From Diphasiastrum complanatum (taxonomy: Eukaryota > Streptophyta > Lycopodiopsida > Lycopodiales > Lycopodiaceae), in the NCBI GenBank assembly GCA_029204225.1, contig CM055113.1:3983194-4047193 (forward strand): 64,000 bases of DNA, given 5' to 3'. The position numbers were made by a program, and so were the translations under genes. Within the stretch, counting starts at the first letter, position 1. Each line of letters starts with the position of its first letter. A model generated the notes under the pieces. It saw nothing but the letters and a program-made list of their open reading frames with translations. It ran no database searches and was not told the origin of the DNA. Shown here one piece after another: positions 11,631-60,957 of this stretch.

Positions 11631-13425
11631 TTGTATTTGCTATCCATCATTTTATTTAATGTTGCAATAGGATTAGTTGCGATAGCAGATTTAGGCACAA
11701 CATCATACATGATTTAGGCAAGGGAAAAGGGTTTAGCTGCCGGTTTGGATTAGACCAGTTGTGTAGAAGGGCCCGATAACTACCCAGGAGATAGGGCTAG
11801 AGCGACTGGGGAGCACCTACAACAACAAAACTGCCAAAATTTAAGGAATCAAGGTTTCTAGACTCCGACCGGAGGAAGATACGTTGATGAGAAAGTAGAT
11901 TCCCATAATAAAAGTGGGCAGTACGCACTTTGGAAACAAGAAGTCAGGGCTACGGGGAGCACAAAGAAAGTTGTAGATTGTTTTCACAACGTGCTGGCTG
12001 TAGGTGATCTGCCTTGCCTGCATCTACGGCCATTTTAGGATGATTCAAAATTGATTAGGGTCTTGAATCACAGCTTTGCTTGTTATTTGCTTGGTTTGTG
12101 GACGCTTTATTGTGGACTCCACTGTTTTCAACTATGAGGTAGAAATGAAAAGGCAATCCTCCGCAGCTTGTCTGACAAATAGAAGCTTGTCTGAGTACAA
12201 GGATAAAAATGAAGGGGAGTGCTAGGATGGGTATGCGAAAGAGTAAATTGGCCACTTCAGTTGGTGTTCAGGACTGTGAAAGCTGGAACCGAGCATCAGG
12301 ATTAGGTAGATGGTCCCAGTGTCATAAAAGCAGTAGCAAATAACATACTATTGCCTTAATTAGTGTTGGTTACTTATTGTCATCTACATCGAAGATATAA
12401 TTCAAATTTATAATACCATGCCACCAATATAAAGAAAAATGTGACTAAAATGCAAAATTACTTTTTTATCAACAACTAAACTCTAAAATTGTACAAAACA
12501 ACTAGAGCATATCTCATAACCTAGCTTAAATTCAATCTCAAGACTTGCTTATTTTGAATTGTGCACGAATTATATCATCAACGTGATCTGAAATTGAACA
12601 AAATAGGACTATTCACATTGAGACGAAAAGCAATAAAAGTAAAAGCTAGTGATAGAATACGGTTTCTTAGCGGAAACGTTGATTTCGATCTTTCATTTGA
12701 CTACAAAATCTTAAGGGGGAAGTCCAAAACAACAAGGCTACCTTTTAAAATATGGAAAGCGAAATACATGTACACCTGATTGATTATTGGTTATGAAATG
12801 TTGTTGAGATTTACTAAGAAAGGCGAAGATCAAATTAGATTTGTCAAGTTTTATGTAGTGGCTGCATGACACACTTGAAAAATAACCAACACGATTCTAC
12901 TCAAATACATTCTAGCTGAATTGAATTAAACTTAGAAATGGATAGCTTTTCCAGAAGGCTCCTTCGATAAATAAACACATACAGGAAGATTAGTCAAGGC
13001 ATCAATGGTTGAAAAGTAAAACCATATGTGAAACAATAAGCAATTTTAAAAAAGACAATCATTTGATAGTGTTGGCGAATGACAAAAACCTTTCAGTTCA
13101 TACTAATATTAAAATCGACATCAAGTAAATCTGTGATATGTCAATCGTACTTGTCAATCTTTATTGAGTGACATAGTTAAATCAAATCTAGTCAATCAGC
13201 TATGCTTCTACAGATGAATTGAATCTTTATTTAGTGACTAATTGATTTAAATATAATGAAGCTGCTCTATTTTCACAAAGGAAATGACAACATATCAGAT
13301 AAGTAAAACTTTGGTGTTTTTGCCTTTCCTAACCTGAAAACTCATCACAGCTGGCACAGAGTCATGGTTCTTGATCTTATTTATGTGGTTGCAAAACGAT
13401 TACAAAAATGTATTTGGATCTCTCA
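11631..13425 (+). repeat. Family X copy 1, 3' part, with internal inversion
   Basis: 11631-12405 matches 29080-29900 and 59605-60405 in the same orientation, including the tail that encodes a C-terminus ending NEGEC in copy 3. From about 12408 to 13398 the sequence matches the next part of the family in reverse orientation. A short tail (13400-13425) returns to plus orientation and matches 30605-30645. Copy 1 also contains about 330 bp (12631-12965) absent from copy 2. All coding frames are broken. Confidence 0.8.
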
Positions 13426-17326: not shown

Positions 17327-17331
17327 TATGC
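17327..17331 (+). repeat. Target-site duplication TATGC (left)
   Basis: TATGC directly precedes the 5' LTR and is repeated at 22656-22660 directly after the 3' LTR, the 5-bp signature of integrase-mediated insertion. Confidence 0.95.
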
Positions 17332-17985
17332 TGTGAGAGATTTCAACTAGTTTAGTCTAGTTTAGTCACATTTTGGTAAATTGTTAATAAGAGGCCAAAA
17401 CTCATTTTAGACTTAGAGATAAACTTTTTGAAGTTATATTAGTTTAAACTACATTCAATAAACACTTTTGGAAAGTGTGGGAAAGTTGGTAGTCGAGTTT
17501 GAGAGAGATTCAAATTTGAACTTTGGGTACATTGAATCTAGACCCAAAAATAGTAGGGTTTACATTTTGGAGGGAAAGCCAAGTGGCCAAATAGGGTTTG
17601 GAAACTCTATAAAAGGATGTAACTATTGGAGAGACACATCTTCTCTCTTCTCTCTCTCATTTCATCATTATACATGGTTCTCTTTGGGTTCTACTACTCA
17701 TTGGTGCACTATCTTGGTGTTATCTTGCAATTCTATGTGTAGAATGATCATTTATTGCTATTTTCGGTTCCACACGTGTGAAATACAGTAGGTTACTGTA
17801 ATTGTACGGAAAGCAAACATATTTTATGTTTTGGTTCATGTTTGATCAATATCTCTTAGAGTTTGCATCTCATTTTGTATGTAGATGCTGATTTTTCTAC
17901 ATTGGCAGGATTGTTGGTTTGTTCCTTATTGTAACCAAAGATTTGGGACTTGGATTGGATCTTGAATGATCTGAAATCCTTCACA
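17332..17985 (+). repeat. 5' LTR (654 bp)
   Basis: Starts TGTGAGAGATT and ends CTTCACA. It contains a TATA box (TATAAAAGG at 17608-17616) followed by a CT-rich stretch, and the palindrome CACACGTGTG at 17771-17780. A 107-codon frame inside it occurs identically in the 3' LTR and is not considered a gene. Confidence 0.95.
17608..17616 (+). promoter_or_regulatory. LTR TATA box
   Basis: TATAAAAGG lies in the middle of the LTR with CT-rich sequence 30-45 bp downstream, a plausible Pol II start for the element RNA. The 3' LTR has the same box at 22278. Confidence 0.6.
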
Positions 17986-17999
17986 TGGTATCAGAGCTC
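17986..17999 (+). promoter_or_regulatory. Primer-binding site (Met tRNA)
   Basis: TGGTATCAGAGCTC follows the LTR end with no gap; the first 11 bases match the initiator Met tRNA complement. Confidence 0.9.
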
Positions 18000-18586
18000 T
18001 TGTGTTTCAGGTTATGAAAGGATCAGCCATCTTTAGCAAGAAGTTTGAGGAGTTACCAATGCTAGAGCATGCTAGATTGATCTCTACTCAAAAATCAGCA
18101 TTTTTGCATGTGTAGAATTGATCTTTTGTAGGTCAAAACTCAATATAGGGTTATATACTTGATCAATTCCGATTTAACACTTGGCTTACTGGAATTAGAT
18201 GATTTTTGGTGCATTAGGAAGGTCTCATTGGAGTCTACAAGAAGATATACCAAGTTTCTAGAAATTGCATGTAGAATTTGAGATATTCAATTTTTTGTGA
18301 TTTTGTCAAAACCCTAATTTTGATTGGATCTCTAGTTTGTGAGGTTACTGAACTTTATTTGAGTGTGTTTCAATCTTAGGAAGTGGCAAGAATCATTAGA
18401 TTGAGGATAGATCATAGGTTGATCAAGATTTCACTATTCTATGTGTTGATTTTCTAGTTAGAAGTGCTAGAAGAGATTTGAGAGGTTCCATATCTTTGTG
18501 ATTTCTTCTTGAGTTCATTTTTTGACATTCAAGAGAGTGCTTTGTGCATTGGAACAGGTTGAAAGAGAAGATCAGGTCACTTCAAC

Positions 18587-21500
18587 ATGGCTACAAGTGG
18601 TGGATTTATGTTGGAGAGCAATGATAGGCTTACCTCAATCAACTATTCTACTTGGAAGGTGAGGATGGAGTCCTTATTGGAGATGAATGAGTTGATGGAG
18701 ATTGTTGCAGGTGTGGAGGAGAGACCTCAAGCACCTCAAGATCAAGTGAGGTATGACAAGAGAGCAAAGAAAGCTCTACACATGATTAAGATGAATGTTA
18801 CCAATGAACTTCTCAAGGAAGTTGGTAAGTGCACATCATCTTTGGAGGCTTGGGAAATTTTGAAAAAGCTTTATGAATCCAAGTCTACATCAAGAGTGCT
18901 TACTCTTAGGAGGCAAATCTTTCAAAGTTTGCAAAAGAGGGAAGAGAGTACTCATGCTTTTGTTTTGAGGGTTAAGGCATTCAATGATGAGTTAGCATGT
19001 ATTGATGAAAGCATTAAGGAGGTAGAGCTTGTTCAAGTTATACTTAATGGCTTGTTGGATGATCATGCTAATCTTGTTCAAAGTTTTGCTATTCAAAAGA
19101 CTTTGCCAAGTATTGTGGATTTGCAAGAGATCTTGGTGAATGAGGAGTATAGGCTTCAATCAAGAGGAGGTGGATCTACATCGACATCTCATTATGAAGA
19201 GGATGCTATGTTCATCAAAGGCAAGTTCAAGGGCAAAGGCAAAGGCAAGTGGTCTAAAGGGCAAGATCAAGGTGAGACTTCTTCTTTTGGAAAAAAGAAA
19301 GATAAGTCTAAGTTGAAATGCTTTTATTGTGGAATCAAAGGGCATTTTGCAAATGAATGTTTGAAGAAGCAAAGAGATGAAGGTAGCAAGCAAATCAACT
19401 TTACTACTAATGATGAGGGTCTAGGTGGTGGTGATTCTCTTTTGATGTGTTCATCAAGTCCAATATCAAGTGAAGGTGACAAAGATTCATGGTGGATTGA
19501 TAGTGGAGCTAGCTCACACATGACTAGTCACAAGGAGTTCTTTACTTCTTTGGTCACTTATGATGGAGCCAAGAAAGCAATTCACATGGCCAATGGTGGT
19601 GAGTGTGTGATTGAAGGTATTGGTTCAATTCCTATTTGTCTCTCTACTAATAGGAAAGCAAGACTTGATGGTGTTCTTTACATTCCTTCACTTTCAAAGA
19701 ATTTGCTAAGTGTTGGTCAAATGATAAAGAAAGGATACATGGTAAAGTTTGGTGGTGATGCTTGTTTCATTACAAAGGAAGAAATCTTGGTTGCTAGGGG
19801 CAATAGACAAGGTAGACTTTTAAAGCTTGATGCTTTTGTTATGGCTAACAAAAAGGATGGAATGGAAAAGGAGATTGGTCTCAACTTTCCAAAGTTATCT
19901 TTTAGCATCAATAAGATTGGTGGATCTTATGCAAAGTCTAACAAGCTTCCTTATGCTAGATCTAGGTCAAGATCTAATATGCTTCTTGGAGATGTTCATC
20001 TTTGTGCTAACTTGGCTAGTCTTGAGGATAATGATGGTGTTTCAATGGTTCTTCATGGCAAGTGCAAGCATGCAAAAGTTAAGGAAAGAGCTAACTTCAT
20101 CAATGGAGGTGGTGAGGGTTCTTCCTTGGAAAAGATTGTTGCTAATGATTTCTTTGATCATATGGAAAAGGATGTTGCTAGGTGCATGCATGAAGGAGGT
20201 GGTTCTTCTACATTCTTTTGTTATGAGTCCAAGAAAGTCATTTTTCCAGCAAGTGGAGTCACATGTCTTCATAAAGAGAGTAGATCAAATGGTTCTATCA
20301 AGAGACTTGGTGAGGGAGATAGTCACAAGTCAAGAAGAAGAGAAGTATGTGAAGAGTTCAAAGTAGGATGTACTTTGAATGATGTCATTTTGAATGATAG
20401 TGAGGAGGAATCATTATCATGTGAGTCATTACCTAAAACATTGAGTAGAAGTTCTTGTTTGAAAAAAGAGAGTACTTCAATCATTCTTATGTTGAATGTA
20501 CTAATCATTTTTTTCATGGCTTCTAATGTTTTTGAGGTTTCTACTTCTTATGATGCAATCATTAAGAGGGAGTCTTATGAAGGAAAGAGCAATGAAAGAT
20601 TGGTTCTTGGGAAGATCCAAGGCATGGATCTCACATCTCTTCATCAACTCAAAGGATTCTATGATTATGAATTGATCACTCATGATCAAGATGGCAAAAA
20701 GTTGGTTGGAGAAGACTACATGGAACAAATCGAGAGGCAATTTCTTCAAGGCAAGGGAGATCTCATTGGTGAGCTTATTGAGGTTTGTTATGGACTCAAG
20801 AGGGCTGGATTTATTAGGTTTGATACTCATCTTCACCTACTCTACTTCATGTTGGATGGAAAATTTGGAATCTATCTTTTGATTTATGATGGTGACATTG
20901 GTGACATTGTTTTCACTAACCTTTGTGGGAGATCGAGATCAAGCATTGATGAGATCTTGTTGAATCTAGATCATATGTTTGAGAGGGAGTATTTCCAGAG
21001 GTTCAGGTCTGAAGATATTCATATCTTTGATATCTTTGATGATCAAGAGGAAGATCAAGAGGTTGGTCTTAAAGGGCTTCAACAACACAAAAGGAAAGGT
21101 GGCAATTTGGAGCTAGTCAAGAGTATCAAAGGAAGGTTATTTGGCAAAGATGTTATGGATCTATTTTTGCAGCTTATTGAAGACTCAAGTAAGGTCAAAG
21201 GAGCAGCAAGGAAGTGTTGTTCAAGTTTACTTTACTTGTTCTATCTCATGTTTGAGCTATTTCATGTGGATGTGTGCAAATTGTCAAGATATGGACAAAC
21301 TAGCTACATTGTCTTGCAATATCTTATTGTTGGAGTTGTACTAGCATTCTTGGCTGGTTTTGCTGATGGAAATGAAGTTATTGGAGGTTCATTATGTCAC
21401 TCATCCATGGCTAAGTTCTCAAGTGTTGAGCTACTTGGTGCCAATACTTGGGGATTGTCAATTTTTGGTGAATTCATGGTCATTTTCTTGTGTCAAGTAG

Positions 21501-22006
21501 ATCTTGAAGATGGACTAGTGCAAATTACTTGGTTTATGGAGTCATGTGGTGCTAGATTTGCATCATGTATATACTCACCTACTCATGGATTTCCAAGGTT
21601 TGATGGTGTCTTGTGGCAAGATGGAGATGGAGGCACATTCATGGAGTTTTATGGTGAAGACATATCAAGAAAGGACAAAGTTGGAGGAGACAAGCAAGCA
21701 AATGGTCATCACTCACATTTATTGTTTGGTTGCTGTAATTTTCCAGAGAGTTCAAAGTTTGAAACATGGAGGAATCATTTCATTTACATTCTATTTGGTT
21801 CTTCATGTTCTAGTTATATCTTGATGTGTAAAATTGATGTAAGAAATAGTGAAGCATCCAATTTGGACACTATTCTCTATATCAATTATGAAAGATACTT
21901 TAGAACCTTAGAAAGAAGATCTATACTTAGGATGGAGATCATTCTAAAGTTGGATCAAAGTTCTATTGTCAAAACTATGCCAAAACTAGTTGAAGAGGGA
22001 GTGTGA
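18587..22006 (+). CDS. Gag-protease fused to rewritten, integrase-less pol (1139 aa)
   Basis: ATG at 18587 starts a typical copia gag (residues 1-230), followed by a Lys/Gly-rich linker, zinc knuckle CFYCGIKGHFANEC (245-258) and aspartic protease WWIDSGASSHMTS (active-site Asp305-Ser-Gly) continuing to LLSVGQMIKKGYMVKFGG (about 390). The integrase zinc region and DDE core expected next are absent; 420-660 is Ser/Glu/Lys-rich and matches nothing known to me. From 711 a ghost of copia RT appears: DYMEQIERQF, CYGLKRAG, RFDTHL, then IYDGD where active RTs have YVDD, then FQRFRSEDI and SSLLYLFYLMFELFHVDVCKLSRY in RT/RNase H order. Hydrophobic stretches lie at 631-648, 907-925 and 955-969. The frame stays open to the polypurine tract, and the TGA stop (22004-22006) is supplied by the first bases of the 3' LTR. 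Gag and protease are probably functional; RT activity is not expected. Confidence 0.9.
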   Translation: MATSGGFMLESNDRLTSINYSTWKVRMESLLEMNELMEIVAGVEERPQAPQDQVRYDKRAKKALHMIKMNVTNELLKEVGKCTSSLEAWEILKKLYESKSTSRVLTLRRQIFQSLQKREESTHAFVLRVKAFNDELACIDESIKEVELVQVILNGLLDDHANLVQSFAIQKTLPSIVDLQEILVNEEYRLQSRGGGSTSTSHYEEDAMFIKGKFKGKGKGKWSKGQDQGETSSFGKKKDKSKLKCFYCGIKGHFANECLKKQRDEGSKQINFTTNDEGLGGGDSLLMCSSSPISSEGDKDSWWIDSGASSHMTSHKEFFTSLVTYDGAKKAIHMANGGECVIEGIGSIPICLSTNRKARLDGVLYIPSLSKNLLSVGQMIKKGYMVKFGGDACFITKEEILVARGNRQGRLLKLDAFVMANKKDGMEKEIGLNFPKLSFSINKIGGSYAKSNKLPYARSRSRSNMLLGDVHLCANLASLEDNDGVSMVLHGKCKHAKVKERANFINGGGEGSSLEKIVANDFFDHMEKDVARCMHEGGGSSTFFCYESKKVIFPASGVTCLHKESRSNGSIKRLGEGDSHKSRRREVCEEFKVGCTLNDVILNDSEEESLSCESLPKTLSRSSCLKKESTSIILMLNVLIIFFMASNVFEVSTSYDAIIKRESYEGKSNERLVLGKIQGMDLTSLHQLKGFYDYELITHDQDGKKLVGEDYMEQIERQFLQGKGDLIGELIEVCYGLKRAGFIRFDTHLHLLYFMLDGKFGIYLLIYDGDIGDIVFTNLCGRSRSSIDEILLNLDHMFEREYFQRFRSEDIHIFDIFDDQEEDQEVGLKGLQQHKRKGGNLELVKSIKGRLFGKDVMDLFLQLIEDSSKVKGAARKCCSSLLYLFYLMFELFHVDVCKLSRYGQTSYIVLQYLIVGVVLAFLAGFADGNEVIGGSLCHSSMAKFSSVELLGANTWGLSIFGEFMVIFLCQVDLEDGLVQITWFMESCGARFASCIYSPTHGFPRFDGVLWQDGDGGTFMEFYGEDISRKDKVGGDKQANGHHSHLLFGCCNFPESSKFETWRNHFIYILFGSSCSSYILMCKIDVRNSEASNLDTILYINYERYFRTLERRSILRMEIILKLDQSSIVKTMPKLVEEGV
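21992..22001 (+). promoter_or_regulatory. Polypurine tract
   Basis: GAAGAGGGAG directly precedes the 3' LTR and would prime plus-strand DNA synthesis. It is also coding, encoding the last residues of the ORF. Confidence 0.8.
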
Positions 22007-22655
22007 GAGATTTCAACTAGTTTAGTCTAGTTTAGTCACATTTTGGTAAATTGTTAATAAGAGGCCAAAACTCATTTTAGACTTAGAGATAAACTTTTTG
22101 AAGTTATATTAGTTTAAACTACATTCAATAAACACTTTTGGAAAGTGTGGGAAAGTTGGTAGTCGAGTTTGAGAGAGATTCAAATTTGAACTTTGGGTAC
22201 ATTGAATCTAGACCCAAAAATAGTAGGGTTTACATTTTGGAGGGAAAGCCAAGTGGCCAAATAGGGTTTGGAAACTCTATAAAAGGATGTAACTATTGGA
22301 GAGACACATCTTCTCTCTTCTCTCTCTCATTTCATCATTATACATGGTTCTCTTTGGGTTCTACTACTCATTGGTGCACTATCTTGGTGTTATCTTGCAA
22401 TTCTATGTGTAGAATGATCATTTATTGCTATTTTCGGTTCCACACGTGTGAAATACAGTAGGTTACTGTAATTGTACGGAAAGCAAACATATTTTATGTT
22501 TTGGTTCATGTTTGATCAATATCTCTTAGAGTTTGCATCTCATTTTGTATGTAGATGCTGATTTTTCTACATTGGCAGGATTGTTGGTTTGTTCCTTATT
22601 GTAACCAAAGATTTGGGACTTGGATTGGATCTTGAATGATCTGAAATCCTTCACA
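22002..22655 (+). repeat. 3' LTR (654 bp)
   Basis: Identical to the 5' LTR. Its first five bases, TGTGA, supply the stop codon of the internal ORF. Confidence 0.95.
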
Positions 22656-22660
22656 TATGC
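22656..22660 (+). repeat. Target-site duplication TATGC (right)
   Basis: Matches 17327-17331. Confidence 0.95.
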
Positions 22661-26346: not shown

Positions 26347-27125
26347 GATGCAATTGCAGCATTAGATTGAGAGCTACACTCACCCAAAGCTATTAGTAAA
26401 ATTATTATGCTCACCTCTTGAGTCTCCTTTGTCGGAATTGTTGTAGGATAAATAAGAGCCTTCAGTTTTTCCAACAAATTGATTAGTTCTCTTGAGTATA
26501 AAATGTATGCCAACCTCCCACAAAGTGGAGTGACTTCAATCATGCAAACTGCATAATCATGTGTATTGACCAAAACTGCTATATTGGTTTCATCATATCC
26601 CTTAAATCCCACACCGAACTCTTTTGAAGAGAGGGCAGAATATCATAATTCCTTGTCCTCATCAACATGGGAAAACATGACAAGCAGATCACACTACATA
26701 TTGTCCTCCAGCGATGCTTGTACCAATAAAGCTTTTTCCCATTGGTTCTCAAACTTGTAAGATCCAAAAACCACGAGTGTCTCCATATTTCTTGTGAGTG
26801 TAGCCTTTGAGTCTTTGATCCCAATTCCCACTACCTTTGACATGCTTTTTGGATTTTCAAAATGAAACTCTAGAGCACGTCCTGAAACACTCATATTACA
26901 AAAAATTATGACTCCTCCTTCACGACTTTGTAGATCTATAGCAGGGTGAGCTAGGTGTTTTCAGTAGTTGCTCCCATAGCTCTGACAGGTTTTGAGGGGC
27001 ATGTCCATAAAACTTGGGCCTACCACATTGGACCTTATAGATGCACTTTCCAAATTCTTCACCGACAAGTCCTCTAACCTACACAATACCACACACTAGG
27101 CAGTTAAAGAAAATACCTTTGGTGA
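26347..27125 (-). repeat. Left arm of long inverted repeat (family X, 5' part)
   Basis: The reverse complement matches 27222-28035 almost throughout. The family X translation is readable in pieces on the minus strand (MSVSGRALEFHFENPKSMSK, GSYKFENQWEKALLVQAS, MIEVTPLCGRL), but with stops and small deletions. Compared with the right arm it lacks about 50 bp of coding sequence after KTPSSP. Confidence 0.85.
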
Positions 27126-27221
27126 TTACAACAATAATAGTTATTATGCATGCAAACGTACTAGAATCTTTTTAATAAATCCCAACACCAACGACAAAAT
27201 TTAAATATGAGGATGATTTGT

Positions 27222-28035
27222 TCACCAAAGGTATTTTCTCAAACTGCCTAGTGTGTGGTATTGTATAAATTAGAGGACTTGTCGGTGAAGAAGTTGGAAA
27301 GTGCATCTACAATGTCCAATGTGGTAGGCCCAAGTTTTAATGGACATGCTCCAACAAGAGAAAGCTCAAAACCTGTCAGAGCTGTGGGAGCAACTACTGA
27401 AAACACCTAGCTCACCCATCAAGAGGGTTTTTGAATTTTTGGACCCCACTATAGATCTACAAAGTGGTGAAAGAGGAATCAGAATTTTTTGTAATATGAG
27501 TGTTTCGGGACGTGCTCTAGAGTTTCATTTTGAAAATCCAAAAAGCATGTCAAAGTTAGTGGGAATTGGGATCAAAGACCCAAAGGCTACACTCACAAGA
27601 AATATGGAGACACTTGTGGTTTTTGGATCTTACAAGTTTGAGAACCAATGGGAAAAAGCGTTATTGGTACAAGCATCGAAGGAGGACAATATGTATGATG
27701 ATCTGCTTGTCGTGTTTCCACATGTTGATGAGGACAAGGAATTACAATTTTCTGCCCTCTCTTCAAGAGAGTTCGGTGTGGGATTTAAGGGATCCGATGA
27801 AACCAATATAACAGTTTCTCTCAATACATGTGATTCTGAAGTTTGCATGATTGAAGTCACTCCACTTTTGTGGGAGGTTGCCAATCAAAAAAATAAATGA
27901 ATTTGCTGAAAAAATTGAAGGCTCTTATTTATCCAACAACAACTCCGACAAAGGGGACTCAAGAGGTGAGAATAATAATTCTTCTAGTAGCCATTTGGGT
28001 GAGTGTAGCTCTCAATCTAATGCTGCAATTTCATC
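27222..28035 (+). repeat. Right arm of long inverted repeat
   Basis: Partner of 26347-27125. The two arms are separated by only 96 bp (27126-27221), so a transcript across both could fold into a hairpin of roughly 0.8 kb. Confidence 0.85.
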
Positions 28036-29049: not shown

Positions 29050-30690
29050 TTGACGACTCCATTGGACCTCAAAAGCACATTTGGTTGTATTTGCCATCCA
29101 TCGTTTTATTTAATGTTGCAACAGGATTTGATTAGCTGCGATAGCAGATTTAGGCACAACATCACACATGATTTAGGCAAGGCGAAAGGGTTTATTAGCA
29201 CTGCACTGCCGGTTTGGATTGGACCAGTTGTGCAGAAGAGCCCAATAACTACCGGGGATACAGGGCCAGAGCGACTGGGGAGTGCCTACAACAACAAAGT
29301 GAACAACTGACAAAGTTTAAGGAATCAAGGTTTCTAGACTCCGACGACCGGAGGAAGATACGTTGATGAGGAAGCAGATTCCCAGGATGAAAGTGGGCAC
29401 TACGCACTTTGGAAGCAAGAAATCTGGGTTACGGAGAGCAGAAAGAAAGATGCAGATTGTTTTCACAACCTGTTGGCTGCAAGTGATCTGCCTTGCCTGC
29501 ATCTAGGGCCATTCTTGGACGATTCAAAATTGATTAGGGTCTTGAATCACAGCTTTGTTTGTTATTTGCTTGGTTTGTGGACGCTTTATTGTGGGCTCCA
29601 CTGTTTTCAACTATGAGGTAGAAATGAAAAGGCAATCCTCCGCAGCCAGAAAAAATGAACTGGTGGATCTAACAAATAGAAGCTTGTCTGAGTACAAGGA
29701 GAAAAATGAAGGGGAGCGCTAGCGTGGGTATGAGAAAGAGTAAATTGGCTACTTCAGTTGGTGCTCAGGACTGGGAAAGCTGGAACCGAGCATCGGGATC
29801 AGGTAGATGGAGCATCCCAGTATCATAAAAGCAGTAGCAAATAACATACTGTTGCCTTAATCAGTGTTGGTTACTTATTGTCATCTACATCCAAGATATA
29901 GATCTATGATCTATTACACGTTTTACAACCACATAAATAAGATTAAAAACCATGACTCTGTGCCAGCTGTGATGAGTTTTCAGGTTAGGAAAGGCAAAAA
30001 CACCAAAGTTTCAGTTATCTGATTTGTTGTCATTTCATTTGTGGAAACAGAGCTGCTTCATTATATTTAAATCAACTAGTCACTAAATAAAGATTGACTT
30101 CATCTGTGGAAGCGTAGCTGATTGACAAGATTTGATTTAACTATGTCACTCAATTACTTAATGTCGATTTTAATATTAAGATTTCTGTATGAACTTAAAA
30201 AGTTGTTTTTATCATTAGCCAACACTATCAAATGATTGTCTTTTGTTTTACATATGGTTTAACTTTTCAACCATCGATGCCTTGACCTATCTTTCTGTAT
30301 GTGTTTATCTATCCTTCATCTCAATCTGACTAGTCCTATTTTGTTTTTCAATTGCAGATCATGTTGATGATAGAATTCGTGCACAATCTGAAATAAGCAA
30401 GTCTTGAGATTGAATTTAAGCTAGGTTATGAGATATGCTCTAGTTGTTTTGTACAATTTTAGAGCTTATCTGTTGATAAAAAAGTACTTTTGCATTTCAG
30501 TCACATTTTTCTTTACATTGGTGGCATGGTGTTATAAATTTGAATTTCTCTATATGTCTAATTTAACTCCTTACAAGAATCATGGTTCAATATTTTTATT
30601 TCACACCTACTACAAACATGTATTTGGATCTCTCAATTTCAAAGAATCTTCCAACCATGTTTTGTTGTTTCCAAGCATATAATGAGTGAC
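29050..30690 (+). repeat. Family X copy 2, 3' part
   Basis: Matches 59580-60957 collinearly and 11631-13425 with an inversion. Parts read as protein in pieces (DESGHYALWKQEIWVTESRK, DDSKLIRVLNHSFVCYLLGL, DLTNRSLSEYKEKNEGE), with stops. After about 29725 it is AT-rich and non-coding, probably 3' flank or introns of the former gene. Confidence 0.75.
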
Positions 30691-39473: not shown

Positions 39474-39629
39474 TGTTAGAAAGTTTCAAGGCTATAGCCC
39501 TTGCACAACACACTAGGAACACAAATGGACGGGTAGCTCAATGGTAGAGCACCCCACCGGAATAGGAGAGGTCCTAGGTTCAATCCCTAGCCAGCCGACC
39601 ACACACACCAAGTGTAAAAGCTTTTCACA
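39474..39629 (+). repeat. Miniature element 5' LTR (156 bp)
   Basis: Runs from TGTTAGAAAG to CTTTTCACA. Contains the first tRNA-like sequence at its centre. Confidence 0.88.
39527..39598 (+). tRNA. tRNA-like sequence 1 (probable Pol III promoter, not a decoding tRNA)
   Basis: Class I tRNA length (72 nt). A box TAGCTCAATGG (39534-39544), D stem GCTC/GAGC, B box GGTTCAATCCC (39577-39587) and T stem CTAGG/CCTAG pairs perfectly. The anticodon stem pairs poorly here (3 of 5) and the acceptor stem poorly (4 of 7). The anticodon position reads GGA but the invariant T33 is C, so decoding is unlikely. Isotype unassigned. Confidence 0.6.
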
Positions 39630-39642
39630 TGGTATCAGAGCC
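39630..39642 (+). promoter_or_regulatory. Primer-binding site (Met tRNA)
   Basis: TGGTATCAGAGCC adjoins the LTR end. Confidence 0.9.
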
Positions 39643-39701
39643 ATGGTTGTGGGTGTGGTCTAGGCAGGTGTAGCTAAAAAGGGCTATGCCTTGAGGGGGA
39701 G

Positions 39702-39848
39702 TGTTAGAAAGTGTCAAGGCTATAGCCCTAGCACAACACTCTAGAAACACAAATGGACGGGTAGCTCAATGGTAGAGCACCCCACCGGAATGGGGGAGGT
39801 CCTAGGTTCAATTCCTAGCCCAACCACACACACCAACAAGTGTAAAAA
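39702..39848 (+). repeat. Miniature element 3' LTR, end truncated
   Basis: Matches the 5' LTR up to AAGTGTAAAA, then passes into R1 sequence, so the last dozen bases including CA are lost. Confidence 0.8.
39755..39826 (+). tRNA. tRNA-like sequence 2 (better folded)
   Basis: Same A box; B box GGTTCAATTCC (39805-39815). The acceptor pairs GGACGGG with CCCAACC at 5 of 7 positions, the anticodon stem CCCCA with GGGGG at 4 of 5, and D and T stems pair fully. Differences from copy 1 fall partly in stems, and copy 2 is closer to a foldable tRNA, so it is nearer the ancestral state. Confidence 0.6.
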
Positions 39849-51779: not shown

Positions 51780-52516
51780 TGTGAAGAATTGAAAAAGATT
51801 ATCTATGTTAGATATAGGGGTCTTATGTTTTTTACATCAAGCATCTAGGTGTAGGATGTTGATAGGAATAAATTTGGCATAGATGGCAAATTATGCATTT
51901 CCACTTGTAATGCCACTATTGAGCCAAAATAGAGTAAGAGGCTAAACACTTGCTAATTAGAGTGTAGACAAGTGTAAAGTTTTTGTTTGATGAATTCCAA
52001 GAGGTCCAATAGGATATAGAGGTGGAACCTTGTGAGGTCCAATAGGAAATTGAGGTGTGCTTGAATATAGTCCAATAGAATTAAGAGGTGCATAGATCAA
52101 TGATCCAATAGGATCAAGAGGTGACAAAATGTGGTCCAATCATAGTTAAGCATAGTGGTAGCTCGTGGACCTACTAGTATCATTGTACTCCTCATTTTGA
52201 AATCAATTGATTTGGTGATTTCATGGATTTTGTGAGTTATTGGATTTCTAGCTTTCTCTCTCTACCCGAGAGCTCTTGATGTATTTTCTCTCTCTACCCG
52301 AGGAGAGCAGCTTGTTTTTACTTAGATTATTTTTTGAATACTTCCCACACGTGTGAGTGAGAGTTGGAAGTGATTGAATGCATGTAGTAGTGTGTTTTTG
52401 CCATAGGATTCAAGATTGATCTTGAATCTCAATCTAGTCTTGATCTTGGTGCATCTACACACCTTAGGAGATCACAAGTACATGTAGTGGACAGTCCACA
52501 CGTGTGAAATTCAACA
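51780..52516 (+). repeat. 5' LTR (737 bp)
   Basis: Runs from TGTGAAGAATTG to GAAATTCAACA. It holds CACACGTGTG twice (52346-52355 and 52497-52506) and several repeats of GTCCAATAG about 30-40 bp apart between 52010 and 52140. Confidence 0.95.
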
Positions 52517-52529
52517 TGGTATCAGAGCC
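52517..52529 (+). promoter_or_regulatory. Primer-binding site (Met tRNA)
   Basis: TGGTATCAGAGCC follows the LTR end with no gap. Confidence 0.92.
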
Positions 52530-53271
52530 TACCTAAGGTTACCATGCATTTTGATCCATCTAAGTGAAAAATTTTCATCAATCTTGAGCTAGAAATTGTC
52601 AAGGCCCATTTTCCTAGCTATCTTGTTCAATCTTGGATCAAAAGAGATCAAAAGGACATTGATTGGGTCTGATCTGGTACTGTACGGAATCAGGTGCTCA
52701 GACACGTGTGAGGAACATCCAATTTCAGTTTGGAAGTTCTCTCTCATGTTTGATCCATTTATCTTGCTTGATAGCTTGTTTTGAAGCTATTTTTGTCTAG
52801 TTTCTGTTGCAATCAGTTTCATTCCATTTGGTTGAGCCAATCAAAAGTTATAAGCTTTTGAAGAGGGTTAGGTAGGGCACCTAGACCTGGGTGGACACAT
52901 TTGGTTTGGTCAAGAGATTGCTTGGTTGATCCAAAATCACAGTTGTATGCTTGCCAATCTCATCTATATGTGATCTAGGCACTGTTTTGAGATCTTAGCC
53001 ATTTTGTTTCATGCAATATCATTGTATTTGAGTCAAATTTGGTTTCTTAGTGTATTTCACAGGTGCTAAGAGTGTTGGATCCTAACTTTGCCTATACTCC
53101 ATCATTTGATGTGAAATAGATCTTGTTTTAGAGAGATTTGTGTAGCTAGTGAGAATCAATTCACAAATGTTGTAAGATCTTTCATAAGAGGAGATAGTAC
53201 TCAATTATTGGATCCTATTGAAAGTGTGTAACAACATTTATTGTTCATCATCTGAGTTTTCTTCACTTCAA

Positions 53272-53832
53272 ATGTCTTCAATGGGTTCATCCTTGTTGGA
53301 ACCAAGTGAAAGATTGACCACTTCAAATTATTCAATTTGGAAAATGAGGATGGAGTCCATCTTGATCCTTCAAGACGTGATGGACATAGTTCTTGGCCTT
53401 GAAGAAGAACCACAAGTTCTTCAAGAGGTTCAAAAATACAAAAAGAGAGCTAGGATGGCTCTCCACTACATTAAGATGAATGTCTCTAATGAGATATTGA
53501 GGGAGATAGGTACTTGTACAGCATCCAAAGAAGCTTGGGATTGTCTCAAGACTATCTATGAGGCTAAGAATACCTCTAGGCTTCTCACTCTTAGGAATCA
53601 AATCTTTCAAAGTAGCCAAAAGAGTGATGAGAGTGCATCTAGTTATGTTTTGAGAGTAAAAGATATTCATAGAGAGCTTGCTTGTATTGGTGATTCCATC
53701 AATCAAAATGAGCTAGTTCAAGTCATTCTCAATGGCTTGAGAAGTGAATTTGATAATCTTGTCCAATCCTATGCCATTAAGGAGGAGCTACCAAGTTTAG
53801 AGGCTCTCCAAAGTGTGCTAATTTCAGAATAA
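53272..53832 (+). CDS. Copia gag (capsid part), ending at TAA
   Basis: ATG at 53272 (MSSMGSSLLEPSERL) is chosen because gag homology starts there; the frame extends upstream only through non-ATG codons. The capsid region reads YSIWKMRMESILILQDVMDI, MNVSNEILREIGTCTASKEA, ELVQVILNGLRSEFDNLVQS and ends ALQSVLISE before TAA (53830-53832). Related elements have Glu at the stop position (AEESRR at 7.5 kb), so this is one base from an open frame: GAA to TAA. Downstream codons continue in the same frame into the nucleocapsid. As read, translation would yield capsid without zinc knuckle or enzymes. Confidence 0.9.
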   Translation: MSSMGSSLLEPSERLTTSNYSIWKMRMESILILQDVMDIVLGLEEEPQVLQEVQKYKKRARMALHYIKMNVSNEILREIGTCTASKEAWDCLKTIYEAKNTSRLLTLRNQIFQSSQKSDESASSYVLRVKDIHRELACIGDSINQNELVQVILNGLRSEFDNLVQSYAIKEELPSLEALQSVLISE

Positions 53833-56800
53833 TCAAGACAAGAGTATAAGCTCTTGAGGATGGACAAGCTTTCTCTCACTCATAATGATGGCAAAGCTCT
53901 TTTTGCCAAGGATAAGCACAAAGAGAGGAGCAAGAACCAACATCAACAATCCTCAAGCAAGGACAAAGTCAAATCCAAAGACAAAGATGAGGAGGAAGAT
54001 GATTCCTCTAATGCTTCATCATCCAAGCTCAAGAAGAAGAAGAAGATCAAGTGCTTTTATTGTGGCAAGAAAGGTCATTATGCCACCAATTGCTTCAAAA
54101 AGAAGAATCAACTCAAGCAAGCCAATATTACCAATGAGAAGGAAGACACTATTGCAAGTGATGGAGAGGGATCTCTTATGGTCTCTAGTTTCTCATCTAC
54201 TCCTTTCAAGAAGGACGGCCTATGGTATATTGATAGTGGAGCCTCTTCACATATGTGTAGCTCCAAGGACTCTTTCTCTTCTATTGCACCTTATGATGGA
54301 GTGAAGAAATCAATATACACTGCAAATGATTTTGAATGTCCTATTGAAGGCATAGGGAACATTCCCTTGAAGCTTGCATCCTCTAAAGTTCTTTCTCTCT
54401 CTAGAGTTCTTTATGTACCTAAGCTTACCAAGAATCTTATTAGTGTTGGCCAATTGCTTGATAATGGCCTTGATGTAAAATTCAATGTTGATACTTGCAC
54501 TATCAAGAAGAATGATGAGATACTTGCATTAGGATCTAGATTTGGTGGCATCTATAAACTAGATCCAAATGAGTATGTGAATGCTTGTAATGTTGCTCTT
54601 GTGAACAAGCTCTCTATGGAGGAATTATGGCATAGGAGGTTGGGACATCCCAACTACAAATCCATGCTCTCTATGATCAAAGAAGCCAAAGCTATTGGCT
54701 TGCCAAAGTCATTCTCCAAGAAGATCAAGCCTTGTGAGGCTTGTGCTATTGCTAAATCTCACAAAAAGCCATTTACAAGATCTTCTATCAAAAGCAAGCA
54801 TCCTTTGGAGTTAATCCACTCGGATGTGCATTTCTCATCAACTACAAGCAAGGGAGGAGCCACTTGTTTTGTTACTTTCATTGATGATTACACAAGATTC
54901 ACTTGGATATATCTTCTTGCTTCAAAATCTATGGTGTTTGATCATTTCCTTATTTTCAAAGCTTATGTAGAGAAGCAATTCTCATTCAAGATTAAAGCTC
55001 TTAGAAGTGATGGAGGTGGTGAATATATCTCCAATAAATTTCAAGACTTTTGTGAGCTTGAAGGCATTAAAAGAGAGTTTTCTTGTGCCTACTCTCCATC
55101 TCAAAATGGAGTGGCCGAGAGAAAGAATAGATCTCTATGTGAATGTGCAAAATCTATGAGAATTGAGGCATCTTTGCCCAAAGATTTTTGGGGAGAAGCC
55201 ATTAATTGTGCAAATTATCTTTGCAATAGGCTCCCACATATAGCTCTTGGAGGAAAGTCACCATATGAAATCTTATTTTTGAAGAAGCCTAAGGTTGATC
55301 ACCTTAGAATTTTTGGATGCTTATGCTTTGTCCATATGCCCTTGGAAACAAGGAAGAAGGAAGATCCTAGTGCATGCAAAGGGATCATGGTTGGATACTC
55401 ATCCACCAAGAAGGCCTATAGAGTCTTTATACTCTCTACTTCTCAAGTTATTGAAAGTAGAGATGTTGTCTTTCATGAAGATCAACACTCATCATTTGAA
55501 GAGGCCGAGATCAAGAAATCTATGGATGCATCATCAATTATTGATTTTGAAGACAATCATGATGTGATGGGGTCGAGATTTGAAGAAGACTCTCCTCGGA
55601 TTTTTTCACCAAGAAGATCCATGAGAGATAGATCCGAGCCTAAGAGGCTCTCATATGTTGACAAAGGCAAACAAGTGGATCTTGATTCCACTAATTATTT
55701 TTTTTATGTCTCTCATGAAGAGCCGAAGAATGTACAAGAGGCACTTAATACCAAGGAGTGGTATGATGCCATGAAGCAAGAGTATGATGCATTGATCACC
55801 AACAATACTTGGGAACTTGTGGATCCTCCTTCCAACAAGCATGTGATTGGTTGCAAGTGGGTATTTCGGATCAAGTTCAATCATGATGGCACCATCAACA
55901 AGCATAAAGCAAGATTATGTGCCAAAGGATTTGCTCAAATCCATGGTCTTGATTATGAGGAAACCTTTGCACCCGTTGCAAAGATGGTGACAATAAGAAT
56001 TCTTATTTCTCTTGCTTGTTTTTTCAAGTGGAAGGTGTTCCAATTAGATGTATCCAATGCTTTTCTAAATGGTTATCTTGAGGAGGAGATCTATATGGAA
56101 CAACCTCAAGGATTCATCAAGGATGAGTCCAAAGTGTGCTTGCTCTTCAAAAGTCTTTATGGACTCAAGCAAGCACCAAGATCATGGTATTCAAGACTTA
56201 ACTCTTTCCTTATGTCACTAGGATTTACTCTTAGTGACTATGATCCTTCCATGTATCTAAAGTTTGTTGATAGCAATATTGTCATTCTTCTTATTTATGT
56301 TGATGACATTATTCTTTGTGGAAGTTGTATCAAGCTAGTTGATGAAACCAAGCTAGCACTTGGATGTGAGTTTAAAATGCAAGATCTAGGAGAGATACAT
56401 TACATCCTAGGCCTAGAAATTGATTTTTATGAAAATCATGTCTTTATATGCCAATCTAGATATGCTCACTCTATGTTGAAAAAATTCCATATGGAAAATT
56501 CTAAGAGCATAGATACTCCAATGGAGCAAATTGTAAAAGATCCTAATAAAGGTGATGAAATATCCTTTGAGGACATCACACTTTTTAGGAGTCTTGTAGG
56601 CTCCTTGATTTGGCTTACCATTACTAGGCCCGATCTTAGTTTTTGTGTGCACAAATTGAGTCAATTTATGCAAGAACCTAAGATCCATCATTGGAAGATG
56701 GCCAAGAGGATTTTAAGATATGTATCTTCATCTTGTGATTATGGTCTACTCTATAAAAGTGAAGATCTATCCATTATTGGCTACTCGGATTCGGACTTTG

Positions 56801-57261
56801 CAAGTGACAAAATGGATCGAAAGTCTATTAGTGCATACACTATCTTTCTTGGAGGCAATCTAATATCTTGGCTTTCCAAAAAGCAAGATACTATATCTCT
56901 CTCTTCATGTGAGGCCGAGTACAAAGCACTCACTACAACTACCAAAGAAGTGCTTTGGATCAAGAGGTTATTAATGGAACTAAAGTGCATCAAGGAGGAT
57001 GATCTACCAATGATCAAGTGTGATAACATCTCGGCCCAAGCTCTTGCCAATAATCCCATATTTCATGCAAGAAGCAAGCACATAGAAGTGGCACACCATT
57101 TTGTGAGAGAAAAGCTTATTGGAGGAGAAATCTATTTGGAGCATGTCAACTCGTCCTCTTGTATTGCCGATCTACTCACCAAGCCTTTGAGCAAAAGTGC
57201 TTTCATCAAGCATAGATCTAATCTTGGAGTTATATCAAGATCAATGCTCAAATCTTCATAG
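53833..57261 (+). CDS. Copia pol: nucleocapsid, protease, integrase, RT, RNase H
   Basis: Open in the same frame as gag, with no ATG of its own until MDKLSL at 53860. Domains in order: zinc knuckle CFYCGKKGHYATNC (54052-54093); protease WYIDSGASSHM (near 54223); integrase zinc region WHRRLGHPNYKS and CEACAIAKSHK; integrase core with Asp in LIHSDVHF, Asp in RSDGGGEY and Glu in NGVAERKNRS; RT with VFQLDVSNAFLNGY and the active YVDD at 56296-56307; RNase H with GYSDSDFASD, SSCEAEYKAL, KCDNISAQAL and HARSKHIEV. All catalytic residues are present. It should be enzymatically competent if translated, but the upstream TAA blocks synthesis as part of a Gag-Pol unless read through. It may be the kind of element that supplies proteins to the defective ones nearby. 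Confidence 0.95.
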   Translation, partial: SRQEYKLLRMDKLSLTHNDGKALFAKDKHKERSKNQHQQSSSKDKVKSKDKDEEEDDSSNASSSKLKKKKKIKCFYCGKKGHYATNCFKKKNQLKQANITNEKEDTIASDGEGSLMVSSFSSTPFKKDGLWYIDSGASSHMCSSKDSFSSIAPYDGVKKSIYTANDFECPIEGIGNIPLKLASSKVLSLSRVLYVPKLTKNLISVGQLLDNGLDVKFNVDTCTIKKNDEILALGSRFGGIYKLDPNEYVNACNVALVNKLSMEELWHRRLGHPNYKSMLSMIKEAKAIGLPKSFSKKIKPCEACAIAKSHKKPFTRSSIKSKHPLELIHSDVHFSSTTSKGGATCFVTFIDDYTRFTWIYLLASKSMVFDHFLIFKAYVEKQFSFKIKALRSDGGGEYISNKFQDFCELEGIKREFSCAYSPSQNGVAERKNRSLCECAKSMRIEASLPKDFWGEAINCANYLCNRLPHIALGGKSPYEILFLKKPKVDHLRIFGCLCFVHMPLETRKKEDPSACKGIMVGYSSTKKAYRVFILSTSQVIESRDVVFHEDQHSSFEEAEIKKSMDASSIIDFEDNHDVMGSRFEEDSPRIFSPRRSMRDRSEPKRLSYVDKGKQVDLDSTNYFFYVSHEEPKNVQEALNTKEWYDAMKQEYDALITNNTWELVDPPSNKHVIGCKWVFRIKFNHDGTINKHKARLCAKGFAQIHGLDYEETFAPVAKMVTIRILISLACFFKWKVFQLDVSNAFLNGYLEEEIYMEQPQGFIKDESKVCLLFKSLYGLKQAPRSWYSRLNSFLMSLGFTLSDYDPSMYLKFVDSNIVILLIYVDDIILCGSCIKLVDETKLALGCEFKMQDLGEIHYILGLEIDFYENHVFICQSRYAHSMLKKFHMENSKSIDTPMEQIVKDPNKGDEISFEDITLFRSLVGSLIWLTITRPDLSFCVHKLSQFMQEPKIHHWKMAKRILRYVSSSCDYGLLYKSEDLSIIGYSDSDFASDKMDRKSISAYTIFLGGNLISWLSKKQDTISLSSCEAEYKALTTTTKEVLWIKRLLMELKCIKEDDLPMIKCDNISAQALANNPIFHARSKHIEVAHHFVREKLIGGEIYLEHVNSSSCIADLLTKPLSKSAFIKHRSNLGVISRSMLKSS

Positions 57262-57269
57262 ATAATTTT

Positions 57270-57279
57270 TTAGGAGGAG
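57270..57279 (+). promoter_or_regulatory. Polypurine tract
   Basis: The purine-rich stretch ending AGGAGGAG directly precedes the 3' LTR. Confidence 0.75.
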
Positions 57280-58016
57280 TGTGAAGAATTGAAAAAGATT
57301 ATCTATGTTAGATATAGGGGTCTTATGTTTTTTACATCAAGCATCTAGGTGTAGGATGTTGATAGGAATAAATTTGGCATAGATGGCAAATTATGCATTT
57401 CCACTTGTAATGCCACTATTGAGCCAAAATAGAGTAAGAGGCTAAACACTTGCTAATTAGAGTGTAGACAAGTGTAAAGTTTTTGTTTGATGAATTCCAA
57501 GAGGTCCAATAGGATATAGAGGTGGAACCTTGTGAGGTCCAATAGGAAATTGAGGTGTGCTTGAATATAGTCCAATAGAATTAAGAGGTGCATAGATCAA
57601 TGATCCAATAGGATCAAGAGGTGACAAAATGTGGTCCAATCATAGTTAAGCATAGTGGTAGCTCGTGGACCTACTAGTATCATTGTACTCCTCATTTTGA
57701 AATCAATTGATTTGGTGATTTCATGGATTTTGTGAGTTATTGGATTTCTAGCTTTCTCTCTCTACCCGAGAGCTCTTGATGTATTTTCTCTCTCTACCCG
57801 AGGAGAGCAGCTTGTTTTTACTTAGATTATTTTTTGAATACTTCCCACACGTGTGAGTGAGAGTTGGAAGTGATTGAATGCATGTAGTAGTGTGTTTTTG
57901 CCATAGGATTCAAGATTGATCTTGAATCTCAATCTAGTCTTGATCTTGGTGCATCTACACACCTTAGGAGATCACAAGTACATGTAGTGGACAGTCCACA
58001 CGTGTGAAATTCAACA
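57280..58016 (+). repeat. 3' LTR (737 bp)
   Basis: Identical to the 5' LTR. Confidence 0.95.
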
Positions 58017-58451: not shown

Positions 58452-60957
58452 TTACAAGTTTGAGAACCAATGGGAAAAAGCGTTATTGGTACAAGCATGG
58501 AAGGAGGACAATATGTATGATGATTTGCTTGTCATATTTCCACGTGTTGATGAGGACAAGGAATTACAATTTTTTGCCCTCTTTTCAAGAGAGTTCGGTG
58601 TGGGATTTAAGAGATCCGATGAAACCAATATAACAGTTTCTCTCAATACATGTGATTTTGAAGTTTGCATGATTGAAGTCACTCCACTTTTGTGGGAGGT
58701 TGGCAAACATTTTTTACTCAAAAAAATAAATGAATTTGCTGAAAAAATTGAAGGCTCTTATTGATCCAACAACAACTCCAATAAAGATTCTAATAAGGGA
58801 GATCACTCACGAGGTGAGAACAATAATTCTTCTAGTAGCCATTTGGGTGAGTATAGCTCTCAATCTAGTGCTGCAATTTCATCTGGTCGATCCAAAAAAG
58901 CTCCTGGAGATGATGGTGATTATAGTGGTAGGGATGATGAGGGTGGCAATGGGGATAAAGATAAAAAGCACAATCCAACTAAAAAAGCTAATGATGATAA
59001 AAGATTGAATCGCACTGTGATAGTGGTATTTAAGAAAGGAGTCATAGTGGTATTTAAGAAAGGAGTCGGACACTTTAATTGTAATCATAGGCGCCAACCT
59101 GTTCCACGAGATTTGCAAAACGATGCTCAGTTCTTTCCAAAATAAAATTTTAGTTTGATAAGAAGTTAAAGAATGATCGAAAGATCACTATAAGGAAGAA
59201 GAGTGCAACTCGAGCTCTCCGAGTGATGATTTGGGTGGCTGCATGTTGAGAATTTGTATGAGCAGCAGGGAACAAATCAATCCTGCATCTCTTGGTGGTG
59301 AATCTAAATACGGCTTGTTCAAAGATTTCGAGGGAACCCCTCTCGCCGTGATAGGCAAGGAAAGCGAAACTGTCAGCAACCTACAATTTCGAGTGCGAAA
59401 GAATGCTAAGCAAATTGCATCGCGACACCAGCCACAATGGCTTTTTATTCTCGTTCACTTTGAATCACAAAATGACACATCTGAGTAACATTCCACAGTC
59501 CGAAAAAGTTGAGACAGACGAAGGAGGCCAGAAAGTGATTGTACCGCAGCTTCCAAATCAGCTTGTTGCAGCTTGACGACTCCATTGGACCTCAAAAGCA
59601 CATTTGGTTGTATTTGCCATCCATGGTTTTATTTAATGTTGCAACAGGATTTGATAGCTGCGATAGCAGATTTAGGCACAACATCACACATGATTTAGGC
59701 AAGGCGAAAGGGTTTATTAGCACTGCGCTGTCGGTTTGGATTAGACCAGTTGTGCAGAAGAGCCCAATAACTACCGGGGATACAGGGCCAGAGCGACTAG
59801 GGAGCGCCTACAACAACAAAGTGAACAACTGCCAAAGTTTAAGGAATCAAGGTTTCTAGACTCCGACCGGAGAAAGATACGTTGATTAGGAAGCAGATTC
59901 CCGGAATAAAAGTGGGCACTACGCACTTTGGAAGCTAGAAATCTGGGTTACGGTGAGGAGAAAGAAAGTTGTAGATTGTTTTCACAACCTGCTGGCTGCA
60001 GGTTGATCTGCCTTGCCTGCATCTAGGGACATTCTTGGACGATTCAAAATTGATTAGCGTCTTGAATCACAGCTTTGTTTGTTATTTGCTTGGTTTGTGG
60101 ACGCTTGTTTTCAACTATGAGGTAAATTTGAAAAGACAATCCTCCGCAGCCAGGAAAAATGACCTGGTAGATCTAACAAATAGAAGCTTGTCTGAGTACA
60201 AGGAGAAAAATGAAGGGGAGTGCTAGCAGGGGTATGAGAAAGAGTAAATTGGCTACTTCAATTGGTGCTCAGGACTGTGAAAGCTGGAACCGAGCATCAG
60301 GATCAGGTAGATGGAGCATCCCAGTATCATAAAAGTAGTAGCAAATAACATACTATTGCCTTAATCAGTGTTGGTTACTTATTGTCAACTACATCCAAGA
60401 TATAGATCTATGATCTATTACACGTTTTGCAACCACATAAATAAGATCAAAAACCATGACTCTGTGCCGCTGTGATGAGTTTTCAGGTTAGGAAAGGCAA
60501 AAACACCAAAGTTTCAGTTATCTGATTTGTTGTCATTTCATTTGTGGAAACAGAGCTGCTTCATTATATTTAAATCAACTAGTCACTAAATAAAGATTGA
60601 CTTCATCTGTGGAAGCATAGCTGATTGACTATATTTGATTTAACTATGTCACTCAATAAAGATTGACAAGTACGATTGACATATCACAGATTTACTTAAT
60701 GTCGATTTTAATATTAAGATTTTTGTATGAACTTAAAGTTGTTTTTGTCATTAGCCAACACTATCAAATGATTGTCTTTTTGAGAATTGCTTATTGTTTC
60801 ACATATGTTGGTGGCATGGTATTATAAATTTGAATTCATGTATATGTCTAATTTAACTCCTTAACAAGAATCATGGTTCAATATTTTTATTTCACACCTA
60901 CTACAAACATGTATTTGGATCTCTCAATTTCAAAGAATCTTCCAACCATGTTTTGTT
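58452..60957 (+). repeat. Family X copy 3
   Basis: Matches copy 2 from YKFENQWEKALLVQA onward to 30660. Coding pieces: 58486-58764 keeps the LLWEVGKHFLLKKINEFAEK junction that copy 2 has lost, then stops at a TAT-TGA change after EGSY; 58843-59145 carries an internal duplication of VFKKGVIVVFKKGV; 60035-60226 gives an intact C-terminal piece DDSKLISVLNHSFVCYLLGL to NEGEC. The 5' part is missing, cut at a junction with gypsy. All told a pseudogene copy. Confidence 0.8.
60035..60226 (+). pseudogene. Family X C-terminal coding piece
   Basis: A 63-codon frame with a stop conserved in position in copies 1, 2 and 3. It ends DLTNRSLSEYKEKNEGEC. Conservation of frame and stop between copies suggests this was the true C-terminus of a protein. 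No function recognised. Confidence 0.45.

What the first reader, a model, noticed from the sequence alone, without database searches (positions are those of the whole stretch)
17332..22655. Recently mobile element encoding gag-protease fused to a long rewritten pol without integrase
Seen: identical LTRs, TATGC duplication, single 1139-codon ORF open from gag to the 3' LTR. Gag, zinc knuckle and protease are intact. The integrase position (residues 420-660) holds unrelated sequence. Established: non-autonomous gag-only LTR elements exist, but they do not usually keep about 700 extra open codons. Inference: an open frame this long is unlikely to survive by chance, so the downstream half may be selected, perhaps as a packaging, parasitism or interference factor, or it is a captured gene.
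Basis: partly seen in the sequence, partly recalled or inferred. Interest (0 to 1): 0.9.

Follow-up and report, generated by a model that had tools for sequence, protein, structure and literature searches.

The report
Jumping gene keeping a hollow frame
A recently active plant-type jumping gene still encodes its particle and protease proteins, but its copying-enzyme half has decayed into a long sequence whose reading frame stays open although much of its protein content looks free to drift.

Summary
Confirmed: a 5.3-kb Ty1/copia element (17332-22655) with identical 654-bp LTRs, TATGC duplication and one ORF from gag to a stop inside the 3' LTR. Gag, zinc knuckle and protease domain are intact; no domain follows residue 384.

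Its 1.74-Gb genome holds many copies. Of 41 young full copies, 39 keep the whole ORF open. Four large deletions (165, 171, 174, 351 nt) are in frame; 6 of 7 young indels are multiples of three. Variants shared between copies give dN/dS about 0.29 in gag-PR, 0.84 at 401-690, 0.42 at 691-827 and 1.1 from 828 on; none is a stop. Residues 711-799 are a degenerate reverse-transcriptase remnant with a broken YVDD motif.

Best reading: a semi-autonomous Gag-protease element mobilised in trans. Its dead pol is kept translatable, perhaps to spare its RNA a long 3' UTR and nonsense-mediated decay (inferred, untested), while being shortened in frame. Neither a captured gene nor a new factor is shown. Counts are small, older copies were mostly picked for long frames, and 401-827 keeps strong codon structure, so a protein role is not excluded. 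No autonomous partner was identified.

The parts
17327..17331 (.). target-site duplication TATGC, left copy (right copy 22656-22660)
17332..17985 (+). 5' LTR, 654 bp, identical to the 3' LTR
17986..17997 (+). primer-binding site TGGTATCAGAGC (initiator-Met tRNA type, recalled)
18587..22006 (+). single ORF, 1139 codons, gag to a stop inside the 3' LTR
18665..19165 (+). copia gag domain (PF14223), residues 27-193
19316..19360 (+). CCHC zinc knuckle, residues 244-258
19490..19738 (+). protease-type domain (PF22936 Pol_BBD), residues 302-384
19928..20032 (+). probable remnant of the start of integrase, residues 448-482
   Evidence: 2 and 4 of 300 shuffles score as high
20717..20983 (+). degenerate reverse-transcriptase remnant, residues 711-799, catalytic YVDD motif broken
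   Evidence: 0 of 300 shuffles score as high
20891..20908 (+). tandem GGTGACATT repeat (9 nt, in frame) inside the former YVDD motif
   Evidence: read; alignment
21035..21048 (+). place where other copies carry module A (about 57 codons); a 14-nt sequence that flanks the module on both sides in the longer copies
21427..21600 (+). module B, 174 nt, present here and absent in other copies (borders approximate)
21992..22001 (+). polypurine tract before the 3' LTR
   Evidence: read
22002..22655 (+). 3' LTR, 654 bp

Best explanation
A semi-autonomous Ty1/copia element. It encodes its own Gag and protease and must borrow reverse transcriptase, RNase H and integrase from another element. Its former pol has decayed beyond recognition and is being lost piece by piece, but the versions carried by multiplying copies keep the frame open to the 3' LTR. 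Proposed mechanism: the genomic RNA is also the Gag mRNA, so an early stop would leave a 3' UTR about 2 kb longer and expose it to nonsense-mediated decay, or uncouple translation from packaging; the dead pol serves as a translatable spacer. Shown: anatomy, recent mobility, recombination between copies, RT remnant, open frame in many copies, in-frame deletions, near-neutral amino-acid change in much of the 3' half. Inferred: supply in trans, selection on openness itself, and decay avoidance (this last step perhaps one chance in three).
For: 39 of 41 young copies open to the LTR. Indels in the 3' half: 11 of 12 multiples of three in 48 copies, 6 of 7 in young copies (P 0.00005 and 0.007 against one in three). 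Shared variants: gag-PR 15N:14S, 3' half 85N:27S and no stop; dN/dS 0.29 against 0.86, Fisher P 0.020, no stop in 112 P 0.003. Copies that lost module A, module B or both are as young as the rest and occur in several LTR haplotypes. RT remnant with broken active site. From residue 828 the codon signal is near that of simulated stop-free drift. RNA with an early gag stop is a known decay target in a retrovirus (passages).
Against: Residues 401-827 have codon structure as strong as gag or stronger, and 691-827 has dN/dS 0.42 (P 0.06): a past or present protein function there. On young copies alone, no stop in 48 shared variants has P 0.08. Six or seven of the seven older copies were chosen with their long frame in view. 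Pairwise dN/dS, which includes decay after insertion, does not separate the halves in three pairs (0.58-0.73 against 0.66-0.75). If the spacer is only a burden, a complete in-frame loss should be favoured; none was seen among the fetched copies. No autonomous partner was identified and decay was not tested.
Confidence: 0.5

Rival explanations
1. The 3' half is a working protein tail with loose sequence needs (assembly, RNA binding or membrane contact), with the RT-remnant part as its constrained core.
For: Frame kept; strong codon structure in 401-827; dN/dS 0.42 in 691-827; two hydrophobic stretches, 631-649 and 908-926, the stronger reached by 14 of 500 shuffles.
Against: 401-690 and 828-end near neutral; large pieces lost in young copies; no domain and no confident fold, though from five near-identical sequences only (pLDDT 26).
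Confidence: 0.27
2. Openness is only inherited: the young copies stem from a few masters that happen to be open, with no selection on the frame.
For: The young copies are nearly identical; 2 of 41 broken copies inserted recently too; of the 50 scored rows below 100% gag identity only 2 have a frame of 1086 or more codons and no stop in the query part.
Against: Several structural versions exist and the four shared indels are all multiples of three; no shared variant is a stop; likeness to pol is lost without a net stop, which in a stop-free drift simulation needs about 0.8 changes per site for 24% amino-acid identity.
Confidence: 0.15
3. The 3' half, or part of it, is a captured host or viral gene.
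For: No recognised family after residue 384; 560-690 and 1000-1139 show no likeness to pol.
Against: RT remnant and probable INT start in the normal copia order. The 62 candidates scored in the genome are at 89-100% identity, as expected of this family; 21756 further first-look candidates were not scored.
Confidence: 0.08

Closest known systems
RLG_Sabrina_SA, 'semi-autonomous' GAG-Pro gypsy elements of wheat (PMC9744471, passages)
   Same: Intact GAG-Pro, no RT or INT, many copies, thought to depend on a partner.
   Different: Gypsy, not copia; the passages mention no long open frame made of decayed pol.
RLG_Quinta, GAG plus unknown domain DUF1 (PMC11302176, passages)
   Same: One ORF with gag followed by a domain of unknown function, no RT or INT, mobilised by an autonomous relative.
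   Different: Gypsy and centromeric; the origin of DUF1 is not given in the passages seen; here an RT remnant is seen and the partner is not known.
TR-GAG elements (PMC8704663, passages)
   Same: Single ORF with gag, mobile without most proteins.
   Different: The example has 562 codons; here 1078-1195 with about 660-780 after the protease. This element could be a stage on the way to such a form (inference).
Neighbouring autonomous copia, window 51780-58016
   Same: Same PBS; gag-PR DNA about 61% identical.
   Different: Full pol; LTR alike only in one short motif.
[quoted passage not shown]
   Same: Works-like comparison: a gag stop with a long 3' UTR marks genomic RNA for decay.
   Different: RSV uses a cis element after the stop; here the proposed solution is to have no early stop. 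No kinship claimed.

Membership tests
Ty1/copia LTR retrotransposon | paired LTRs, target duplication, PBS, polypurine tract | tested here: met
Ty1/copia LTR retrotransposon | copia-type gag and protease | tested here: met
   PDB match to Copia VLP protein
Ty1/copia LTR retrotransposon | integrase before reverse transcriptase, both functional | tested here: not met
   only degenerate remnants, in that order: a defective derivative, not an autonomous member
semi-autonomous GAG-Pro element (Sabrina_SA type) | gag and protease intact, RT and INT absent | tested here: met
semi-autonomous GAG-Pro element (Sabrina_SA type) | recent multiplication | tested here: met
   41 young copies, LTR pairs differ at 0 or 1 site
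semi-autonomous GAG-Pro element (Sabrina_SA type) | autonomous partner with shared LTR ends | not tested
   the pattern search meant for this did not complete
TR-GAG | single ORF encoding gag, without most other proteins | tested here: inconclusive
   single ORF with gag, but with protease and a long tail
gene-capturing LTR element | insert homologous to a host or viral gene | tested here: inconclusive
   no such homologue found, but the genome search scored 62 of 21818 candidates

The most novel reading that the evidence does not exclude
Frame-only selection: a transposon's dead pol is preserved purely as a stop-free translatable spacer, its amino acids drifting while surviving deletions stay in frame, because its RNA must be translated to near its end to escape nonsense-mediated decay or to be packaged. 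Decayed pol would then be whittled in frame toward a bare Gag-protease element.
Probability: 0.35. Interest if true: 0.75.

Novelty: new variant of a known kind. Interest (0 to 1): 0.55.

Why it matters
Semi-autonomous Gag elements are known, and some carry long extra frames called 'unknown'. This family offers many young, recombining copies in one genome in which protein-level selection can be told apart from selection for an open frame. If openness alone is selected, unknown domains behind gag in other elements could be hollow frames, and RNA surveillance would shape transposon architecture directly.

Tried and rejected
Standard searches after residue 384 gave nothing above chance. Ordinary HMM scoring of the 3' half against a copia pol profile was not convincing (RT: 3 of 500 local shuffles as good; INT worse than 146 of 500); only gap-tolerant profile alignment brought out the RT remnant. 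Against the neighbour's pol alone the peaks were close to the shuffled background. Frame +1 peaks near residues 836 and 1041 suggested a scrambled pol; they rest on 60 null replicates, and codon composition favours frame 0, so they stay unexplained. Two viral-contig scans found no relative. Structure prediction was uninformative. Paper searches (answered; failed: 42, 75, 77) listed no paper that I recognised as reporting frame-only selection; I saw titles and starts of abstracts, and passages of six papers and one abstract. This is no proof of absence from print.

Full report
Observation. The element is as described: LTRs 17332-17985 and 22002-22655 identical over 654 bp, 5-bp duplication TATGC, PBS next to the 5' LTR, polypurine tract before the 3' LTR, and one 1139-codon ORF whose stop lies in the first bases of the 3' LTR. 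Gag, zinc knuckle and a protease-type domain are recognised; nothing convincing is found beyond residue 384.

Copies. The window lies in an unnamed 1.74-Gb assembly. With gag-PR as query, 104 of 160953 first-look candidates were scored. 54 rows show 100% identity (rounded), and 51 of these have a stop-to-stop frame of 1086-1203 codons; of the other 50 rows only 2 have a frame of that length and no stop in the query part (my counts). I fetched 40 young copies taken from the top of the gag ranking. With the window, 39 of 41 have the ORF open to the LTR; one has a frameshift and one a stop. LTR pairs differ at 0 sites in 35 and at 1 site in 6. The 5-bp duplications match exactly in 38 of 41; in two more they look shifted by one base and in one they do not match (my counts). 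These are separate, very recent insertions.

Length classes. The 39 open copies comprise 11 of 1195 codons, 15 of 1137-1140 and 13 of 1078-1082 (my count). They differ mainly by module A (171 or 165 nt absent, with different breakpoints; the 171-nt difference lies between two 14-nt direct repeats) and module B (174 nt); one copy has instead a 351-nt deletion. All four A/B combinations occur, spread over LTR haplotypes, which shows recombination between active copies. All seven older copies keep A and six of seven keep B, so the losses look derived. In 48 copies there are 12 distinct indels in the 3' half, 11 of them multiples of three; in young copies 6 of 7; the exception is a single-base deletion in one copy.

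Selection. Variants shared by two or more copies mostly reflect the active masters; unshared ones mostly arose after insertion. Among 40 young copies (L028 left out) shared variants are 0 in gag-PR, 11N:4S at 401-690, 0N:1S at 691-827 and 25N:7S from 828 on, with no stop; with L028 included there is one shared difference in gag (L027 and L028). Differences from the young set shared by at least two of seven older copies are 15N:14S in gag-PR and 13N:4S, 12N:6S and 24N:5S in the three 3' parts, with no stop. With the site numbers, dN/dS is 0.29, 0.84, 0.42 and 1.13. Gag-PR departs from neutrality (P 0.001); the 3' half as a whole does not (85N:27S, 0.86, P 0.27); the two differ (Fisher P 0.020; without the young copies P 0.028); no stop in 112 shared variants has P 0.003, but P 0.08 on the 48 young ones alone. 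Unshared changes of the older copies give 51N:13S in gag-PR, about neutral, a useful control.

Limits. The older copies were chosen mostly with their long frames in view, which lowers the number of stops seen. Some shared changes may be repeated mutations or travel together in one recombinant tract. Region borders near module A differ slightly. Pairwise dN/dS, which includes decay after insertion, is 0.58-0.73 for gag-PR and 0.66-0.75 for the 3' half in the pairs among L011, L051 and L052, so those pairs alone would not separate the halves; against L053 the values are 0.28-0.50 and 0.67-0.86.

Origin. A gap-tolerant alignment to a profile of copia pol proteins places residues 711-799 on the reverse transcriptase, from the YMEQ region to beyond YVDD (0 of 300 shuffles as good), with the catalytic motif broken and a tandem 9-mer in it; 448-482 resembles the start of integrase (2 and 4 of 300). 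Both lie in copia order. 880-1000 is borderline (18 and 7 of 300); 560-690 and 1000-1139 show nothing. Codon-position structure is as strong as in gag or stronger in 401-827 and weak from 828 on, close to what a simulation of stop-free drift gives. The half is best read as decayed pol with a long coding history, at least in its first part.

Function. Gag and PR are intact and RT and INT are dead, yet the insertions are young: RT and INT must come in trans (inference). A related autonomous copia in the window (51780-58016, duplication GTTGA, same PBS) belongs to a family of which all 51 scored places are at least 99% identical. Its LTR resembles ours only in a short motif, so it is a possible but unproven helper. 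Why keep the frame? If amino acids hardly matter but openness does, the constraint is on translation of the RNA. Retroviral RNA with a long 3' UTR after gag is a decay target and RSV guards against it with a cis element (passages). I propose the same pressure here; this is inference and untested.

Known kinds. Semi-autonomous GAG-Pro elements, GAG plus an unknown domain, and mobile TR-GAGs are in print (passages). New here is the case for a pol-derived frame held open while its content drifts, visible in one recombining young population. Hence: new variant of a known kind.

Noticed in passing
51780-58016 +: Autonomous copia with identical 737-bp LTRs, duplication GTTGA and full gag-pol, but a premature stop in gag in this copy; 48 of 51 scored relatives in the genome list a 1357-codon frame.
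   Followed up: partly
26389-27991: Large inverted repeat: arms of 426 nt, 92% complementary, 495 nt apart, with further arms nested inside; related sequence at 58452-58786.
   Followed up: no
11671-12416, 29130-29917, 59652-60421: Three related repeats in the window, mostly about 85-98% alike.
   Followed up: no
39474-39826: Two tRNA-like hits 228 bp apart in tandem (Rfam tRNA, 54.5 and 36.1 bits); ARAGORN finds one, with an odd anticodon loop.
   Followed up: partly
ORF residues near 836 and 1041, frame +1: Pol-like peaks out of frame (scores 21.3 and 19.8, above most of 60 null replicates): perhaps rearranged pol pieces, perhaps chance.
   Followed up: partly
L011-L050, gag-PR against 3' half and LTR: Young copies share almost no variants in gag-PR, while LTR and 3' half carry many in mixed haplotypes: a recent sweep or conversion of the gag part in a recombining population.
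   Followed up: partly
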